Positions 675-56,885 of a DNA stretch of 64,000 nt are shown here, in pieces. Made by a program: the position numbers and the translations under genes. The stretch is from NCBI RefSeq assembly GCF_019312595.1, contig NZ_JAHWDQ010000001.1, forward strand, positions 1 to 64,000, in the 5' to 3' direction. Every line of letters begins with the position of its first letter. The stretch's first letter is position 1. Source of the stretch: Zhongshania aquimaris. GTDB taxonomy: Bacteria > Pseudomonadota > Gammaproteobacteria > Pseudomonadales > Spongiibacteraceae. The notes beneath the pieces are model-generated. The model was given only the letters and a program-made list of their open reading frames with translations, did not search any database and had not been told where the DNA came from.

Positions 675-2300
675 TTACGGAGAATTAGCTATAGAATTTG
701 GTAACTTCAAGTAAGCTTGATAATTTTCAGATGACTTCATCATATAGCTTCGCCCTTCAATCACAAAACCGTCCAAGCCATGCTCTATCGTATAAGCTGC
801 GAGATCTGCTATGTTGTTTATAAACCCTCTTCCATTGAAATTTAGAGAGGTATTACACAAAACACCATAACCTGTACGTAACTTGAATGCATCGAGCAGC
901 TCATACATTTTACAATTAGAATCAGGAGTTACAGTTTGAATGCGCGCCGTCCCATTAACATGTGTCACGGCTTCTAGTGCACCGGTCGAAACGGGCCGCG
1001 TATAAAGCATAAATGGGCTTGGGTGAAAGCAGTCAAACCATTTTTCGGCATCTTCTTCGAGACAGAGCGGCGCTATCGGACGAAACTGCTCGCGTTGCTT
1101 AATCACATTCAATCGCGCCTTAGTGCTATTTTGAAACGGCGACGCAAGGATGGACCGGTTTCCCAGTGCGCGTGGTCCAATTTCGTATTTTCCATTAACC
1201 CACCCAATGATCATGTTATTAGCCAGCATGTCGGCAATCATTGCGATGTTCGCATTACACTCATCAAATAAAGAAGCATCAAATGTGCCATTAGTTTCAA
1301 ATTCAAGACCCGAATAAACACTCCAATTTATCTTGGGATTTCCTGTGAAGTAAAATTGCGCGTCAATAGCTGTGCCTATCGCCGATCCTGAATCGTTGGC
1401 AACGGGCGGTATGAATACCTCTGGGAAGAGATTGGATTCCCGCCACTTTGTGTTCCAATCACAATTTAATCCGCACCCACCAGAAATTAACAATGGCAAG
1501 CCTTTCTTCATATTCGATTTAGCAAATTGATAAAAGCGATCGAAAATTCTATCGCTAACAATACCTGCGAAGTTACGAAATTCTTGATCATCTAAGCCAA
1601 CATTGTAGTGACTACAATGCCTTAAACTCTCACAATCCTTCGCCCTGAGGTGTAAGCAGTCCTGCATTAAAAAAGTGATTATTTCTTCCTCTTCATCCGT
1701 AGGCAGACTTCGCTTCGAAAATGATGCTAGAGCCATCAGCTTTCCTGCGTCAGAAAACCGGGAGAATTCCGCAACACTCTTATCAAAGGTTGGATCCGCT
1801 AGGCCGTAGAGCAAGGCATACCGATGTCCAGGTTCAGGCATGACATCGCCTAGCTTTGTTATATTCAACTCGGAATCAATTTCGTAGAACGATCCGATTA
1901 CGCCTTCCCAAAGCAGCGCATAGCATGGTGTTCCTTTAGGTAGATTTGACATTCCAAAAGCACAAAGAAGATGTGATCGTTCGTGAGAAGATGAAAAGTA
2001 TTCAACAGTCTTCCCGAATAGACGACTTTTGCTAACTATAATACCGCTGTTATGCACACCACGGTAACCAGCAATACTTGGCTGTTCAGGTAGATGCGAG
2101 TCGCTCGGCCACCAGCCACCTCTACATAGAACATCGGGAACCTCTTTGAGTTTACTAAAAACATTGAACGCATCCGGAACTGCCAGAGGTGAATAGCGAT
2201 AACCGGAGTTCTTTTCAGACTCAACCGACGCCACTAGCTGTCCATCTTCAAGATAAGCGAATGCACCATCGTGGCCCGGATTGTAAGATAGGATAATCAT
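675..2300 (-). CDS. Carbamoyltransferase, NodU/CmcH/TobZ family
   Basis: The 541-residue protein should move a carbamoyl group from carbamoyl phosphate, via a carbamoyl-adenylate, to a hydroxyl of a sugar or other acceptor in the cytoplasm. The N-terminal Kae1-like domain shows NPGHDGA (residues 7-13), the metal-binding HxxxH pair H106/H110 and NDSGSAIG around 302-309. The C-terminal YrdC-like domain has EIGPRALGNRS near 373, KQREQFRPIAP near 401, HVNGTARIQ near 447 and NTSLNFNGRG near 483. Length and motif order fit the family. At residues 132-133 the protein has EG where many relatives have DG. Its ATG overlaps the stop of the upstream gene by four bases (ATGA), so the two are translationally coupled. 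The natural acceptor cannot be read from sequence; the neighbouring glycan enzymes suggest a surface sugar. Confidence 0.9.
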   Translation of the reverse strand: MIILSYNPGHDGAFAYLEDGQLVASVESEKNSGYRYSPLAVPDAFNVFSKLKEVPDVLCRGGWWPSDSHLPEQPSIAGYRGVHNSGIIVSKSRLFGKTVEYFSSSHERSHLLCAFGMSNLPKGTPCYALLWEGVIGSFYEIDSELNITKLGDVMPEPGHRYALLYGLADPTFDKSVAEFSRFSDAGKLMALASFSKRSLPTDEEEEIITFLMQDCLHLRAKDCESLRHCSHYNVGLDDQEFRNFAGIVSDRIFDRFYQFAKSNMKKGLPLLISGGCGLNCDWNTKWRESNLFPEVFIPPVANDSGSAIGTAIDAQFYFTGNPKINWSVYSGLEFETNGTFDASLFDECNANIAMIADMLANNMIIGWVNGKYEIGPRALGNRSILASPFQNSTKARLNVIKQREQFRPIAPLCLEEDAEKWFDCFHPSPFMLYTRPVSTGALEAVTHVNGTARIQTVTPDSNCKMYELLDAFKLRTGYGVLCNTSLNFNGRGFINNIADLAAYTIEHGLDGFVIEGRSYMMKSSENYQAYLKLPNSIANSP

Positions 2301-4525
2301 AGAGTGGCCAATCCATCGTGAAGTATTTTAGCCTTTGTCTGGAGCATATCGTCAGCATTAGATACGGGCGTTGAGGTAACGGAATTCGCTTTGATAACAA
2401 TGGATTCTAATATCGCAGCTCCTGGAAGCCTTCGCTTATTGATTCGCCCAGCAAGTTGAGTAGAGCGAGTTGGCCAGCTGTTAACGTGTAAGGTCATTGG
2501 AAGATGTGGTATTGGCGTCGGATCCCACATCACGCGTCTATGGACAAGATGCCCGTCTACTTTCCAAAGTATCTCGCAGGGAGTCCATTCAATTGTGAAG
2601 CGATGACTCGCTTTGGATGCATCAAAACCGAGGTCGATATAACTTGGAGCACCTCTATAACCATAGTCAAAATTTGCTCCTTCACCACCGGGGTTGTAGA
2701 AGACATTGACCATTAGCCGATCTGGCCTATTCCCGGCGATTTCGATATCTATCTCCTGTCGTGGAGAGTTTCGGTGAAGGAAAAAACCTGTGACTACGCC
2801 GGGTACATTGGAGGCTTGAAGAGTCGCTTCGAATGTTCCAAACAAATATTGGTCCCGGCTGCATATCGACGCTGCGCTGTACTCGCGAACACCCAGAGGC
2901 TCACTTCTGACGAAAAGCTCGGCCCCAACTCCCGGTTTAATCATGAAGTTTGAGGGGCGAAACAATGCTAAATTATCTGTGAAGGTGTCATTTCTCAGAA
3001 GCCAGCGCTTTGTGTCGAGAGTTTCATAACAATCGGTGAAGCTAACGAGCTTTACATCCCCAGCCATCTCATCCTCTTTCATGGCGGAGCGAATGCCTTG
3101 CCACCATTTACGAGACTCAACGACCCATGGCGACTTATCCCACTTTGGCTTCTTGGAAATTGGGAGTTGGTCCTTTCCCATTTCGCCTTGTGGGGTGGGT
3201 CGTTGACCAAGGTCCTCCAGCTCGGGAAAAGAGCTGGTGGGAGGCGCGCATCTGAGGTGCTCACAAATAACTTGCCATTTATTAGGTTCCTCTGTGTGAA
3301 GCACCGCGATGTGGGCACCATTAAGTTCGTCCGTAATGCTTTCAAAAATATCATCTGAAGCGATACCTTTGGCAGCAGTAAAAATAAATTTTGCTTTCGG
3401 ATAGAGACTTCTGAGCTTTCTTACGTTTGAACCTAAAGACCCGATATTTACATATGCATCAAAAACACGGCCCTCCCTTCCGTCAAGAAGCCGTTCTAAT
3501 TCAGGCGCCGGTAATCCCTCAAGATCACTGCAGCATTTATATCCGAGCATACACAAAGCCATTGCTAACGATGAATGACCAGAGCCTTCAGGTCCAAAAG
3601 TGAACACAGGGTGCTCAATTGGGCGAATATTGAATAAAGATGCTGCTTCACTATTGATCGCGCCAATTGTTGTAAGCGTGGGAAGAATTGAATAAGAGTT
3701 ACTCGATTTAACATCGCGCCGCTGGCTAACAATTGGTTGTTTAGCGGCACTAACATTCAGTGCCTCAAACATGTGATTTATCCAGAGGTCAATGGGGCCG
3801 CGGCAAGGAAGCATTTGAAGAAGTTTTTCAGCCCCTTCGCGAGAGACGATGTATCCGGAAAGGTGCCAGAGTCCGCGTAATGGACTGAATACGGTGTTTG
3901 AAATAGAGACCTTTGGCGCACCATGCTTTGCTTCGAGATACGATAGATAAAGAACATCGAATGTTCCACTCTTATCACATTCCCCCATGACCTCCTCCCA
4001 CACTTGGTCTAGGTGTTTTGCAAATCCATTATGAAACCAAACATCGTCCTCTAGAATCATTACGTAGGCGTGATTACTCGCTGCAATCTGCCTCCAAACA
4101 TTAATATGTGAACGAGCTACTGCAATCTCAGCCCGGCTCATTCGAATTGGAGTGTTTAGTTCAAACTTTGTGGGAACAACCAATGGCTGGGGTTCTACAA
4201 AAAGCTGATCTCCGAGGGTATAAAACGGATCGATATCGGCATTTTCGGGCGGAACTCCCAAGAATGCCTTGGCGTCAACGGCGACGTATCGATCGGTCAA
4301 ATTTAAGAGATGGTTCCCAGACGAATCCAATAGTCGCCGTAGTTCTTGCTGCATATTGGACCAACGAATCGTTTCACGATCGAGATTGATAACATAGATT
4401 TTCTCAATCTGAGCGCCTTGCATACCGAATGTTTGGCATGTCTGCTTTGGCAGGAGCCTCCGGAGAGCTAACCAGAACTGAAATACGTAGCTGACAACTT
4501 TTAGTGATGGACGCGCTAAGTTCAT
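2297..4525 (-). CDS. Three-domain fusion: GT25 glycosyltransferase, sulfotransferase-like P-loop domain, GH16 domain
   Basis: Three domains lie in this 742-residue protein. Residues about 40-270 match glycosyltransferase family 25 (LPS-type transferases): KIYVINLDRE near 42, SRAEIAVARSH near 130, and the acidic ILEDDVWF at 157-164. Residues about 303-435 look like a sulfotransferase-type P-loop domain, with FGPEGSGHSS at 310-319 as the likely PAPS-binding loop, PKAKFIF near 376 and a W..ICEHL helix near 417. Residues about 515-712 match glycoside hydrolase family 16, with an intact catalytic E-x-D-x-E at E591, D593 and E595. There is no cleavable signal peptide; residues 10-26 form a hydrophobic or amphipathic stretch that might hold the protein at the membrane. 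The gene starts two bases after the upstream glycosyltransferase and overlaps the carbamoyltransferase. GT25 and GH16 assignments are firm, the sulfotransferase one less so. The acceptor is unknown. Confidence 0.85.
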   Translation of the reverse strand: MNLARPSLKVVSYVFQFWLALRRLLPKQTCQTFGMQGAQIEKIYVINLDRETIRWSNMQQELRRLLDSSGNHLLNLTDRYVAVDAKAFLGVPPENADIDPFYTLGDQLFVEPQPLVVPTKFELNTPIRMSRAEIAVARSHINVWRQIAASNHAYVMILEDDVWFHNGFAKHLDQVWEEVMGECDKSGTFDVLYLSYLEAKHGAPKVSISNTVFSPLRGLWHLSGYIVSREGAEKLLQMLPCRGPIDLWINHMFEALNVSAAKQPIVSQRRDVKSSNSYSILPTLTTIGAINSEAASLFNIRPIEHPVFTFGPEGSGHSSLAMALCMLGYKCCSDLEGLPAPELERLLDGREGRVFDAYVNIGSLGSNVRKLRSLYPKAKFIFTAAKGIASDDIFESITDELNGAHIAVLHTEEPNKWQVICEHLRCAPPTSSFPELEDLGQRPTPQGEMGKDQLPISKKPKWDKSPWVVESRKWWQGIRSAMKEDEMAGDVKLVSFTDCYETLDTKRWLLRNDTFTDNLALFRPSNFMIKPGVGAELFVRSEPLGVREYSAASICSRDQYLFGTFEATLQASNVPGVVTGFFLHRNSPRQEIDIEIAGNRPDRLMVNVFYNPGGEGANFDYGYRGAPSYIDLGFDASKASHRFTIEWTPCEILWKVDGHLVHRRVMWDPTPIPHLPMTLHVNSWPTRSTQLAGRINKRRLPGAAILESIVIKANSVTSTPVSNADDMLQTKAKILHDGLATL

Positions 4526-4527
4526 AG

Positions 4528-5385
4528 CTACTCCGCGCGCGACAAGGATCGATAGGCTTGCTGGTTCGATAGCCTCCAGTTTCTCTTATCGCTTCGGTAA
4601 CTGAGTGGCCATTTACTTGTGGATATCTCCTCCCAATCATGGACAACAAGTAGCTCCATCTCAGGACAACTTTCTTCAACAAGCATCTCGAATACTGATC
4701 TTGTCAGGTTGCCAGGGCCAGTAGATGCTTGGACTTCAGGTAATTCCCCCGTAATTTCCTGTTCAAGTGATATCGTCGAATTTAGCAGTGCGCGCTCTAC
4801 AATGGGGTGATTGCGAGCCGCGATCAAAGGTGTCGTATTAAAGTAGAAAATCCAACTCAATTGATTTGCTCCCAGATTTACGAATTCTGAGGGTGGAACC
4901 ATCTGAGCTGTCGAAATATCGTAGCAGAAAGGTTGCAGCTTCAATCGACCATCTGAAAAAAGGTGATCAATTTCCGTTCCATGATAAACATCGTCTGCGT
5001 CAATGTAGAAACCGCCCTCCACAAAGATGTAAGAATAGCGGAAGTAGTCTGATTTCATCGAGGGGTGGTAGCACTTTTCAAAAGCATTCTCATAACGCGT
5101 GCCCAAATGGGTTCGGATAAAATCCCTTGCCGCGCTTTCATCGAAAACCTGAATTTCGAAGCCTGATTGTTCGAGCACCGTCCAAGAACTCATACACTCC
5201 CTAACATCCGGCGGTAATCGATCAAGATCATCCCAGAACTGCACTATTCGTTTTGGAGGCATGGTTGTAAGGCGTGCGTTACGCCCCTGCTGTGAATCGT
5301 TAGTTCGCTGTACAAAGTCACGAACAAAATTAGAGCGACTACGCTCGTCTTTACTTAATGGATCCGCTTCACTAAATTCACTCAT
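4528..5385 (-). CDS. Glycosyltransferase with DXD motif (GT32/OCH1-like sugar-binding region)
   Basis: This protein resembles the Gly_transf_sug group, which transfers nucleotide-sugar residues and includes OCH1-like and capsule or LPS enzymes. It has PKRIVQFWDD near the start, SDYFRYSYIFVEGG in the middle, and a YIDADD acidic motif that supplies the metal-binding DXD. I chose the ATG at 5385 (285 residues). An in-frame TTG at 5445 would add 20 residues, but the longer start lacks a good ribosome site at the right distance. Its stop lies two bases before the ATG of the three-domain gene, so it is the first gene of a three-gene operon. The donor and acceptor sugars cannot be inferred. Confidence 0.8.
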   Translation of the reverse strand: MSEFSEADPLSKDERSRSNFVRDFVQRTNDSQQGRNARLTTMPPKRIVQFWDDLDRLPPDVRECMSSWTVLEQSGFEIQVFDESAARDFIRTHLGTRYENAFEKCYHPSMKSDYFRYSYIFVEGGFYIDADDVYHGTEIDHLFSDGRLKLQPFCYDISTAQMVPPSEFVNLGANQLSWIFYFNTTPLIAARNHPIVERALLNSTISLEQEITGELPEVQASTGPGNLTRSVFEMLVEESCPEMELLVVHDWEEISTSKWPLSYRSDKRNWRLSNQQAYRSLSRAE

Positions 5386-5498
5386 ATTATATTTGGTCAC
5401 CCTTGCTGTAGGTAGATTCCACAATCGAATAGTTAAAATAACCAAAATCCGTTAACGTCCTGCGGATTGAGGTAGTAAAGAAAACGTGTCACTGATTA

Positions 5499-5662: not shown

Positions 5663-6457
5663 TTAATGAAAATCCACCCCGTCCAAAAAATGCCCCCCAT
5701 CCACGGTGAGCACATTGGTGTAGACCTCGGTACTTTCTATCGATTTATGCCCAAGGAGCTGACTGACGATCTTCAGCGGCCGTCCGTGCAGCAATAGGTG
5801 TATTGCGAAGCTGTTCCGAAAGGTATGGCAGGTAATATTGATCGGCGCGCCCCCTACTCGGTCCACTAAATCATGGATATGCCGGTTCACCGTCTGGCTG
5901 GCCATGGTGAAGATCCGCTCGTCCCTCCTGAAATGTCCCGCGTACAGGTAGCTCTGTATGCGATCCTGAAGAATGGGGTCGACGATGAGCACGGCGCGCT
6001 TGGGGCTGCGGGCGAGTTGTACGTTGGTCGGTCGCCCCGGCCGCTGTTTGAGTGTGCGGAGCACCACCATGAAATCGTAGCCGTCATCGATGAAGTGACT
6101 CGGAGTGAGGGCCAGAACCTCAGAAATCCGGGCGCCGGCAGTCCACATAAGGTCAAGGATCAGGCGGTAAGTTGGGTGTTTTTCGGCGTCGAGAAAGTCC
6201 AGGACTTCGGGCTTGAGTAAGTACGTGGGCATCGCGTCCACGGTATCCAACACGAGTTCGCGCTTGGCCATGAGGCGCTGCCAGTCGATTTGCACATGCT
6301 GAATCGGGAACGTATCGAGGCGCGGCTCTTTCGGGGTGAAGCGTCGTTTCGGCCGGGATGCGGGAAATGCCCCGCGGCTGTCCTGAATCCGTTCCATTTC
6401 ACCCAATCCTTGGTGCACATTTGCTACCTTTATACGCTCAGGTTTGAGGCGTTGCAA
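5663..6457 (-). CDS. Tyrosine recombinase/integrase, plasmid or ICE type
   Basis: This 264-residue protein has the catalytic set of tyrosine recombinases: R110 in GARISEVL, H211 and R214 in HTFRNSF, H237 in LLGHKS and the nucleophile Y246 in EVYTN. It lacks a long N-terminal arm-binding domain, like a set of compact recombinases found on proteobacterial plasmids and integrative elements. The start shown is a TTG; an ATG at 6397 would give 244 residues and keep every catalytic residue. The gene is visibly richer in GC than its neighbours: a sampled line at 5881-5940 is 38/60 GC, against 23/60 for 3361-3420 in the glycan operon. That suggests a separate origin. No tRNA or obvious att repeat was found next to it. 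Confidence 0.88.
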   Translation of the reverse strand: MQRLKPERIKVANVHQGLGEMERIQDSRGAFPASRPKRRFTPKEPRLDTFPIQHVQIDWQRLMAKRELVLDTVDAMPTYLLKPEVLDFLDAEKHPTYRLILDLMWTAGARISEVLALTPSHFIDDGYDFMVVLRTLKQRPGRPTNVQLARSPKRAVLIVDPILQDRIQSYLYAGHFRRDERIFTMASQTVNRHIHDLVDRVGGAPINITCHTFRNSFAIHLLLHGRPLKIVSQLLGHKSIESTEVYTNVLTVDGGHFLDGVDFH

Positions 6458-6972: not shown

Positions 6973-7905
6973 GTGGCTAGTACCCCGATATGCTTTAACA
7001 ATGTCGAAAAATTCACTCTCAAAGGTGGTCTTTACACAAGTAACACTGAATGGGCACCTTTCAGGCTGATGGTCGCCAAGGGTGATGAATCCAAGCCCGA
7101 TAAGAAAAAATACCGACCCTCGCAGGAAACCTTGCAAGCGACGTTTACGGCTATTAACGCCTTCTACAAACATCTAACCGATGAAGAATACTGCTATGGA
7201 AATCCGGTTCAAATAGCTAAAAAGGATTGTCGGTATTTGATCAAAGATGCCCAGGTCAAAGATGTAAAGCGGTTAACGGAAGACCAGTGGAATTTCTTGC
7301 TGGAGGTTGCTCATAGCATGGCGGATGACGACTCACGTTACGAGAGAAGCTTATTTCTGATTGCATCGTTAAAAACGCTTTTCCTTCGCATTTCCGAATA
7401 CTCTGACCGGCCGGAATGGTCACCTACAATGAGTCATTTTTGGAAAGATAATGGCAATAACTGGTGGTTAAAGATCTATGGAAAAGGCAGAAAAGTCCGC
7501 GATATTACGGTGCCGCCAAGCTTTCTTAGTTATTTAAGCCGATACCGACTCTATCGAGGCCTAAATAAACTCCCTGTTGCAGGTGAAAACCACCCTATTA
7601 TTGAAAAAATCCGCGGCCGTGGCGGAATGACAGCGCGACAATTATCAAGATTGGTGCAAGAAGTATTTGATATGGCGTACGAGAGAATGAAAGCCCGTTA
7701 TGGCGAAGAAAATGCCAGTAACTTTAAAGAAGCGACGTCACACTGGCTGCGTCATACCGGAGCCAGTTTAGAGATTGAACGCGGTCGTGCGCTAAAAGAT
7801 GTATCAGAGGATCTTGGTCATGCCAGTATGTCCACAACAGATACGGTGTACGTGCAGACAGATGATAAAAAACGGGCTGCTAGCGGTAAGGAAAGAAAAG
7901 TTTAG
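6973..7905 (+). CDS. Tyrosine recombinase, probably N-terminally truncated
   Basis: The 310-residue product has R139 in FLRISEYSDR, H257 and R260 in HWLRHTGAS, H283 in DLGHAS and Y293 in TVYVQTD, so the catalytic domain looks complete. It is not closely similar to the neighbouring recombinase. The only in-frame start is a GTG at 6973, six bases after a TAA, and the protein begins directly in a segment (NTEWAPF) that in longer relatives follows an N-terminal SAM-like domain. An integrase-like N-terminal peptide is visible just upstream in another frame (6897-6980). A frameshift or deletion has therefore probably removed the DNA-binding half, and activity is doubtful. A convergent pseudopilin gene follows. 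Confidence 0.75.
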   Translation: MASTPICFNNVEKFTLKGGLYTSNTEWAPFRLMVAKGDESKPDKKKYRPSQETLQATFTAINAFYKHLTDEEYCYGNPVQIAKKDCRYLIKDAQVKDVKRLTEDQWNFLLEVAHSMADDDSRYERSLFLIASLKTLFLRISEYSDRPEWSPTMSHFWKDNGNNWWLKIYGKGRKVRDITVPPSFLSYLSRYRLYRGLNKLPVAGENHPIIEKIRGRGGMTARQLSRLVQEVFDMAYERMKARYGEENASNFKEATSHWLRHTGASLEIERGRALKDVSEDLGHASMSTTDTVYVQTDDKKRAASGKERKV

Positions 7906-56800: not shown

Positions 56801-56885
56801 TGGTGCGGATGGAGAGACTCGAACTCTCACGCCTTGCGGCACCAGAACCTAAATCTGGCGTGTATACCAATTTCACCACATCCGC
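56801..56885 (-). tRNA. tRNA-Leu (anticodon UAG)
   Basis: The minus strand folds as a class II tRNA. The acceptor stem is GCGGATG/CATCCGC, the anticodon stem CCAGA/TCTGG encloses the loop TTTAGGT with anticodon TAG, a long variable arm follows, and the T arm contains GTTCGAGTC. The CCA end is encoded. The tRNA upstream of tig and clpP is a common order in gammaproteobacteria. Confidence 0.95.

What the first reader, a model, noticed from the sequence alone, without database searches (positions are those of the whole stretch)
2297..4525. One polypeptide joins GT25, a sulfotransferase-like domain and GH16
The sequence shows three domains in a row with their key motifs: GT25 ILEDDVWF, a P-loop FGPEGSGHSS and the GH16 triad E591-D593-E595. 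I know of no described enzyme with this combination. It could add a sugar, sulfate it and then cut or remodel the chain within one protein.
Basis: partly seen in the sequence, partly recalled or inferred. Interest (0 to 1): 0.75.

Follow-up and report, generated by a model that had tools for sequence, protein, structure and literature searches.

The report
Mobile sugar-enzyme operon near phage-defence genes
The gene does encode a sugar-adding enzyme fused to a sugar-cutting enzyme through what looks like a dead sulfotransferase linker, and it is part of a small operon that has moved between distant bacteria on plasmids, prophages and other mobile DNA, in many cases beside known anti-phage genes, so it may alter a sugar coat to keep phages out.

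Summary
The fusion is real: window 2297-4525 (minus), 742 aa, GT25 + middle domain + GH16. It is not an assembly error: the architecture recurs at 36-59% identity in Acidovorax, a Hydrogenophaga and an alphaproteobacterial MAG, four viral contigs (one ends inside the gene), plasmids of Citrobacter, Klebsiella, Rhizorhabdus, Sphingobium, Rhizobium and Aliarcobacter, and complete E. coli chromosomes. GT25 EDD and GH16 ExDxE are present in 15 of 15 aligned proteins. The middle domain descends from a sulfotransferase, but neither PAPS-binding arginine is found in any of the 15 and its dN/dS is the highest of the three domains, so the sulfation step is unsupported. A GT32-type glycosyltransferase gene lies beside the fusion in 21 of 21 loci, a NodU/TobZ-type carbamoyltransferase in 12 of 21. 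Several loci adjoin Gabija, Septu, Shedu, Lit or AbiD genes, though the window shows no defence neighbour I could assign. Against matched controls the enrichment is suggestive, not conclusive. Best reading: a mobile glycan-modification cassette, probably changing a lipid-linked surface sugar and hence phage sensitivity. Target unknown, no phage test exists here, and structure prediction never ran (server full).

The parts
2297..4525 (-). Fusion gene: GT25 - degenerate sulfotransferase-like domain - GH16 (742 aa)
4448..4501 (-). N-terminal basic helix (about residues 9-26), proposed peripheral membrane contact
   Evidence: weak: in the window protein 221 of 2000 shuffles reach the same hydrophobic moment
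3626..4408 (-). GT25 domain region (residues 40-300; Pfam match 41-239)
4043..4051 (-). GT25 EDD motif (residues 159-161), present in 15 of 15 aligned proteins
3191..3625 (-). Sulfotransferase-derived middle domain (residues 301-445), PAPS-binding arginines missing
3566..3601 (-). Former P-loop (residues 309-320, TFGPEGSGHSSL); no Arg/Lys at the PRTGT arginine position in any of 15
2390..3010 (-). GH16 domain region, lichenase-like (residues 506-712; Pfam match 544-691)
2741..2755 (-). GH16 catalytic ExDxE (E591, D593, E595), present in 15 of 15
   Evidence: alignment to solved lichenase 3i4i
4528..5445 (-). GT32-type DXD glycosyltransferase (ORF start TTG; homologues suggest the true start is the ATG at about 5385); ends 2 nt before the fusion gene
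   Evidence: the E. coli copy is annotated as glycosyltransferase family 32
675..2300 (-). NodU/TobZ-type O-carbamoyltransferase; overlaps the end of the fusion gene by 4 nt
5663..6457 (-). Tyrosine recombinase (Xer/integron-integrase-like), upstream of the operon, same strand
6973..7905 (+). Second, divergent tyrosine recombinase

Best explanation
The finding is the central gene of a mobile sugar-modification cassette: GT32-type glycosyltransferase, GT25-(dead sulfotransferase)-GH16 fusion, and in many copies an O-carbamoyltransferase. Proposed mechanism: in the cytosol, probably at the inner face of the inner membrane, the GT32 and GT25 domains add sugars to a lipid-linked glycan that many Gram-negatives share (for example LPS core or undecaprenyl-linked units). 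The GH16 domain trims or transglycosylates that chain, the sulfotransferase remnant serves as a scaffold between the two active sites, and the carbamoyltransferase caps a hydroxyl. The altered surface glycan would change phage adsorption, which would explain carriage by prophages and plasmids beside defence genes. Shown here: domains, catalytic motifs, missing PAPS arginines, operon, mobility, neighbourhoods. Inferred: membrane location, substrate, order of reactions, scaffold role, the effect on phages.
For: GT25 EDD and GH16 ExDxE in 15 of 15 homologues; Arg/Lys at the two PAPS positions in 0 of 15 (two gapped at the second). dN/dS 0.15/0.20/0.11 (GT25/middle/GH16) for Acidovorax-Hydrogenophaga and 0.09/0.38/0.07 for Klebsiella-E. 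coli: all three constrained, the middle least. GT gene beside the fusion in 21 of 21 loci, carbamoyltransferase in 12 of 21. Full-length homologues on 9 of 72,556 plasmid records and in 4 of 5,426 E. coli genomes; in the 3 of 4 E. coli regions that I fetched it lies near T4SS genes. In L007 the operon lies past the portal gene of a contig with portal, terminase, scaffold and major head genes (that these are P2-type is my reading of gene order), on the side that PMC9122126 describes as the P2 defence hotspot between gpA and gpQ (passages). The tree groups the Citrobacter plasmid copy with Rhizorhabdus, alphaproteobacterial and Comamonadaceae copies (100/99), apart from Klebsiella and E. coli, which belong to its own family. 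Neighbours: GajA/GajB (L008, L003), PtuA/PtuB and PDC-S06 (L051), PDC-S06 and AbiD (L031), Lit and Shedu (L034), Orf5/HEC-06 (L036). Precedent: the putative carbamoyltransferase WapO is assigned the carbamoyl group of LPS core heptose in Pseudomonas (passages of PMC8005017).
Against: No phage experiment and no known substrate. None of the three module proteins matches a PADLOC model. The matched control is only suggestive: 7 of 100 neighbour ORFs against 2 of 140, p=0.03, or against 4 of 140, p=0.12; regions 5 of 8 against 2 of 8, p=0.16. The genes (Gabija, Septu and others) were scanned because they looked like defence genes. The window shows no defence neighbour that I could assign to it, though its contig starts at position 1. 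No stretch looks like a transmembrane segment, and the N-terminal helix is unusual in only some homologues. gpA was not found in the L007 record. No match in 50,697 phage records. No structure model could be obtained.
Confidence: 0.45

Rival explanations
1. A dedicated intracellular anti-phage system: the glycosyltransferase/hydrolase/carbamoyltransferase set acts on phage nucleic acid or protein, or on a host component after infection, rather than on the cell surface.
For: Defence-gene neighbours; no transmembrane-like stretch and no signal peptide by eye (no predictor was run), so the GH16 domain is probably cytosolic; copies in Alphaproteobacteria, Comamonadaceae, Enterobacteriaceae and Campylobacterota, wide for a system tied to one surface structure; PHROG 2835 (category moron, glucosyltransferase) matches the GT25 part at 5.7e-12.
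Against: No nuclease, sensor or toxin domain matched in the module; GT25 and lichenase-type GH16 relatives known to me act on glycans (recalled); no PADLOC match.
Confidence: 0.2
2. An exopolysaccharide/capsule or biofilm accessory module carried by mobile elements for other reasons; the defence neighbours only reflect shared mobile islands.
For: GT32 and carbamoyltransferase families occur in capsule, LPS and nodulation-factor pathways (recalled); region-level enrichment against controls is not significant; the module also lies among transposases and integrases.
Against: No gene named as a polysaccharide polymerase, flippase or exporter in the 12 annotated plasmid and E. coli stretches, whose plasmid annotation is incomplete; immediate adjacency to dedicated defence genes in several loci (PDC-S06 downstream in L031 and L051, PDC-S53 in L008, Orf5/HEC-06 in L036).
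Confidence: 0.22
3. One reading: one protein that glycosylates, sulfates and cuts the chain.
For: Sequence relation to Sulfotransfer_4 (10 of 12 members at E<=1, best 6.5e-8) and weak profile matches to solved sulfotransferases 9kf1 (5.5e-4) and 5tiz (6e-3). A Lys or Arg lies one or two positions from the expected site in some rows: first site in L034, L035, L036; second site in the window, L034, L037 and L051.
Against: No Arg/Lys at either aligned position in 15 proteins (two gapped at the second); loop lost in Aliarcobacter, Sphingobium and Rhizobium copies; lowest conservation and highest dN/dS of the three domains.
Confidence: 0.04
4. A small-molecule (antibiotic) modification module, by analogy with TobZ and novobiocin or geldanamycin carbamoyltransferases.
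For: The carbamoyltransferase is related to TobZ, GdmN and the decarbamoylnovobiocin enzyme; 2 of 12 annotated stretches show resistance genes in the flanks.
Against: GH16 and paired GTs make little sense for a small drug; the carbamoyltransferase is absent in 9 of 21 loci; 10 of 12 annotated stretches list no resistance gene.
Confidence: 0.04

Closest known systems
GT25 glycosyltransferases (Pfam PF01755; solved relative: procollagen galactosyltransferase 1)
   Same: Family match above Pfam cut-off in the window protein, 12 of 12 members matched at E<=1, EDD motif
   Different: Fused to two further domains; donor and acceptor unknown
GH16 lichenase-type glucanases (NCBIfam BglS, ExoK; PDB 3i4i)
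   Same: ExDxE catalytic triad and similarity over most of the domain
   Different: No transmembrane-like stretch and no signal peptide by eye; C-terminal in a fusion; far below the BglS and ExoK equivalog cut-offs (84 of 300 bits; 47.7 of 350)
Sulfotransferases (Pfam Sulfotransfer_4; PDB 9kf1, 5tiz)
   Same: Sequence relation over parts of the middle domain
   Different: PAPS-binding arginines missing in all 15 aligned proteins; about 145 aa only
NodU/TobZ O-carbamoyltransferases, including LPS enzyme WapO (WapO's membership recalled)
   Same: Both Pfam domains above cut-off; match to solved TobZ and GdmN
   Different: Operon with GT32 and the GT25-GH16 fusion; far below the NodU equivalog cut-off (250 of 1000 bits)
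Phage serotype-conversion cassettes (gtr type; recalled) and P2-type prophage defence hotspots (PMC9122126)
   Same: Mobile glycan-modifying genes in accessory loci of prophages; in L007 past the portal gene
   Different: Different enzymes, no flippase in the module; many copies on plasmids; phage effect untested

Membership tests
GT25 | Pfam PF01755 match above gathering score | tested here: met
   58.6 bits against 24
GT25 | Conserved acidic EDD motif | tested here: met
   15 of 15 aligned proteins
GH16 | Pfam PF00722 match above gathering score | tested here: met
   90.4 bits against 22
GH16 | Catalytic ExDxE | tested here: met
   15 of 15
GH16 | Hydrolase or transglycosylase activity | not testable with these tools
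   needs purified protein
PAPS sulfotransferase | Profile match above cut-off | tested here: inconclusive
   window protein 14 bits against 22.8; L037 at 22.8 bits; best member 6.5e-8, 10 of 12 members at E<=1
PAPS sulfotransferase | 5'-phosphosulfate loop with Arg/Lys and 3'-phosphate-binding Arg (roles recalled) | tested here: not met
   0 of 15 at both aligned positions, L030 and L034 gapped at the second; the loop stretch of the 5tiz alignment scores only -2.0 bits by itself
NodU/TobZ carbamoyltransferase | Carbam_trans_N and Carbam_trans_C domains | tested here: met
   2.3e-20 and 1.5e-54
Known anti-phage defence system | Match of module proteins to a defence model | tested here: not met
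   no PADLOC match for the three proteins at E<=0.01
Anti-phage defence system (unknown type) | Enrichment in defence islands over matched controls | tested here: inconclusive
   5 of 8 against 2 of 8 regions, p=0.16; ORFs p=0.03 or 0.12 depending on what counts
Anti-phage defence system (unknown type) | Protects cells from phage | not testable with these tools
   needs plaque assays

The most novel reading that the evidence does not exclude
This is the core of an undescribed, widely mobile phage-resistance system made only of sugar enzymes, in which one polypeptide builds and cuts the same cytosolic glycan, with a dead sulfotransferase domain as internal scaffold and a carbamoyl cap as an optional add-on.
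Probability: 0.3. Interest if true: 0.8.

Novelty: new variant of a known kind. Interest (0 to 1): 0.6.

Why it matters
It turns an isolated odd fusion into a defined, testable module: two core genes plus one accessory gene, with homologues in complete E. coli genomes and conjugative plasmids. If it protects against phages, it would add carbohydrate enzymes as a compact class to the defence repertoire and suggest a glycan target shared by proteobacteria and Campylobacterota. It is also an example of an enzyme domain that appears to be kept after its catalytic residues were lost.

Tried and rejected
Assembly artefact: rejected. Active sulfotransferase: rejected on residues. Second copy of the fusion, or another carbamoyltransferase, in the own genome: none. 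Phage-record homologues: none. Viral scans with the Aliarcobacter, Rhizobium and Klebsiella copies found none. Citrobacter-type copy in E. coli: none at DNA level. gpA in the L007 record: not found. tRNA near the module in the window: none, only a tRNA-Leu at 56801-56885. Solved relatives of the GT32-type protein: none at E<=0.1. L006 matched only through GH16 and is a different protein; it was dropped from all counts. L004 (5' part missing) and the cut-off L009 protein were left out of the protein alignments and tree; L004 was also left out of the 21 loci.

Dropped before the defence tally: DrmD matches of 4 ORFs (one, L030:4972-5715, is annotated as the IS21 helper ATPase IstB; the other three were not mapped), and mad3 matches of 2 case and 3 control ORFs, AriA matches of 2 and 2, HEC-05 matches of 2 case ORFs and mad8 matches of 2 control ORFs, as weak or generic and not mapped. 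In the control set the group II intron RT and the topoisomerase fragment (DpdF) are given both in and out. Only 25 of 69 (case) and 25 of 93 (control) matching families were displayed, so weaker hits may be missed. In one search the PDC-S48 and DEDDh matches were not traced to a locus.

Papers: nine searches were answered. Seven of them (40, 41, 66, 88, 89, 95, 127) aimed at this architecture or module; among the titles and abstract openings listed (10 of 50 papers, all in the others) I saw nothing that describes it. The library lacks most subscription papers, and supplementary tables could not be read, so prior mention in a screen is possible. Two papers were opened for passages only (PMC8005017, PMC9122126).

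The tree warns that the long branches L008 and L034 join each other, which may be false. The label Gamma that I gave the window row there is a guess; no call names the window's organism.
Full report
Check of the observation. The ORF at 2297-4525 on the minus strand codes for 742 aa without interruption. Pfam places GT25 at 41-239 and GH16 at 544-691, both well above curated cut-offs; Sulfotransfer_4 at 307-383 is below its cut-off in this protein. Across the 12 proteins of alignment A2 the three families match 12, 12 and 10 members at E<=1, the last with a best E-value of 6.5e-8.

What the domains still can do. In an alignment of 15 fusion proteins the GT25 EDD and the GH16 ExDxE are present in 15 of 15. 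A profile of the middle domain finds solved sulfotransferases weakly (9kf1, 5.5e-4; 5tiz, 6e-3); the printed alignments show where the PAPS-binding residues fall, namely the arginine of PRTGT (5tiz, a stretch that scores only -2.0 bits by itself) and the arginine of TVRD/TIRD (9kf1, 5tiz) (the roles of these residues are recalled). Neither aligned position holds Arg or Lys in any of the 15; L030 and L034 are gapped at the second. Against this, a Lys or Arg lies one or two positions away in L034, L035 and L036 at the first site and one position away, or next to the gap, in the window, L034, L037 and L051 at the second, but the loop itself is gone in L034, L035 and L036. Invariant columns are 20% (GT25), 6% (middle) and 29% (GH16). 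dN/dS by domain is 0.15, 0.20 and 0.11 for the Acidovorax-Hydrogenophaga pair and 0.09, 0.38 and 0.07 for the Klebsiella-E. coli pair, with approximate domain bounds. The middle domain is therefore best seen as a constrained but catalytically dead remnant. GH16 is lichenase-like (NCBIfam BglS 1.1e-23, PDB 3i4i 8.7e-15).

Location in the cell. No stretch of 19 residues exceeds a Kyte-Doolittle mean of 1.65 in 12 proteins. I see no signal peptide by eye; no predictor was run. The N-terminus carries a basic helix (net charge +2 to +5 in the best 18 residues) whose hydrophobic moment is unusual in some members (L003 9, L030 28, L005 31 of 2000 shuffles as high) and not in others (window 221, L007 379, L008 806 of 2000). 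Membrane-surface contact is an inference.

The operon. Upstream lies a GT32-type DXD glycosyltransferase (Gly_transf_sug 3.5e-7), downstream a carbamoyltransferase with both family domains. The genes are 2 nt apart and overlap by 4 nt respectively. By tblastn over 21 loci, window included and with near-identical strains counted separately (four Aliarcobacter, three E. coli), the GT gene lies beside the fusion in 21 (in two pieces in L033) and the carbamoyltransferase in 12 (window, L002, L003, L005, L007, L009, L030, L031, L035, L036, L037, L051); it has no match in L008, L032, the four Aliarcobacter and the three E. coli loci. The core is thus GT + fusion.

Distribution. Found in 5 genome-collection loci (three complete, one lacking the 5' part, one sharing GH16 only), 9 of 72,556 plasmid records with at least 80% of the query in one place, four viral contigs, of which L009 ends inside the gene, and 4 of 5,426 E. 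coli genomes (two of the four records name the same strain). In overlapping species samples full-length copies occur in 2 of 398 (phylum), 1 of 369 (class, the own genome) and 2 of 385 (class of G205) genomes; G826 has a contig of the same length as L003's and is probably the same genome. None in 50,697 phage records. The tree groups the Citrobacter plasmid copy with Rhizorhabdus, alphaproteobacterial and Comamonadaceae copies (fork 100/99), apart from the window and, at the next fork (96/99), from the Klebsiella and E. coli copies, although those two belong to Citrobacter's own family: horizontal transfer.

Neighbourhoods. The window operon lies beside two tyrosine recombinase genes. Elsewhere there are IS21, IS4 and IS91 elements and integrases, a head-gene cluster (portal, terminase, scaffold, major head; P2-type by my reading) with the operon past the portal gene (L007), two further viral contigs with terminase genes (L037, L009), and in the three fetched E. 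coli regions T4SS genes and an annotated ABC-three-component system. PMC9122126 states that the P2 cos-proximal defence hotspot lies between gpA and the portal gpQ (passages); gpA was not found in the L007 record. PADLOC in the matched set of 8 replicons gave NsnA in L030, PDC-S06 and AbiD in L031, Lit and SduA in L034, SoFic in L035 and Orf5/HEC-06 in L036, that is 7 of 100 neighbour ORFs and 5 of 8 regions at E<=1e-20. Same-replicon controls gave MTase_II and PDC-S33, plus a group II intron RT and a topoisomerase fragment: 2 (or 4) of 140 ORFs, 2 of 8 regions. One-sided Fisher p is 0.03 (or 0.12) for ORFs and 0.16 for regions. Outside the matched set, ten genes picked because they looked like defence genes gave GajA/GajB and PDC-S53 (L008), GajA/GajB and a type III restriction subunit (L003), PDC-S06 with PtuA/PtuB (L051) and a Lit domain (L037). 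A pooled scan of 40 ORFs from six further loci, the window among them, gave only methyltransferases, Lit (traced to L037), and untraced PDC-S48 and DEDDh matches. The association is striking by eye, moderate by the controlled count.

Mechanism. The most economical reading is remodelling of a lipid-linked glycan from the cytosolic side: GT32 and GT25 add sugars, GH16 trims or transfers, and the carbamoyltransferase caps. A putative carbamoyltransferase is assigned to LPS inner-core heptose in Pseudomonas (WapO; passages of PMC8005017). Changed receptors would affect phage adsorption, which fits carriage on prophages and plasmids.

Novelty. Nine answered literature searches, seven of them aimed at this, did not turn up the architecture or module in the titles and abstract openings listed. 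In the records, 8 of 9 full-length plasmid copies and 4 of 4 E. coli copies are annotated as 'family 16 glycosylhydrolase', the ninth as 'glycoside hydrolase, family 16'. The parts are known families; the fusion and the mobile operon appear undescribed within what could be searched.

Noticed in passing
L032:6646-11984 (K. michiganensis pKmfe267-2): A GFA-family gene and the module are bracketed by two tyrosine recombinase genes with a 300-nt stretch 97% identical, and a 39-nt palindromic sequence beside each: a possible recombinase-bounded mobile unit.
   Followed up: partly
L031:14051-16756 and L051:14132-16798: The candidate defence gene PDC-S06 lies directly downstream of the carbamoyltransferase in two different hosts, suggesting joint transfer.
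   Followed up: partly
L031:11220-13781: The Rhizorhabdus carbamoyltransferase gene is interrupted by an IS4-family transposase gene.
   Followed up: no
L033:8110-8917: The glycosyltransferase gene of the A. butzleri plasmid copy is in two pieces, annotated as two hypothetical genes.
   Followed up: no
L006:3-1742: A different fusion: a membrane-protein region (glycosyltransferase-2-like by eye only) followed by a related GH16 domain (39% identity).
   Followed up: no
window:157-597: Orphan ORF at the contig start, helicase-like by eye, no Pfam or PADLOC match; the left end of the island is not visible.
   Followed up: partly
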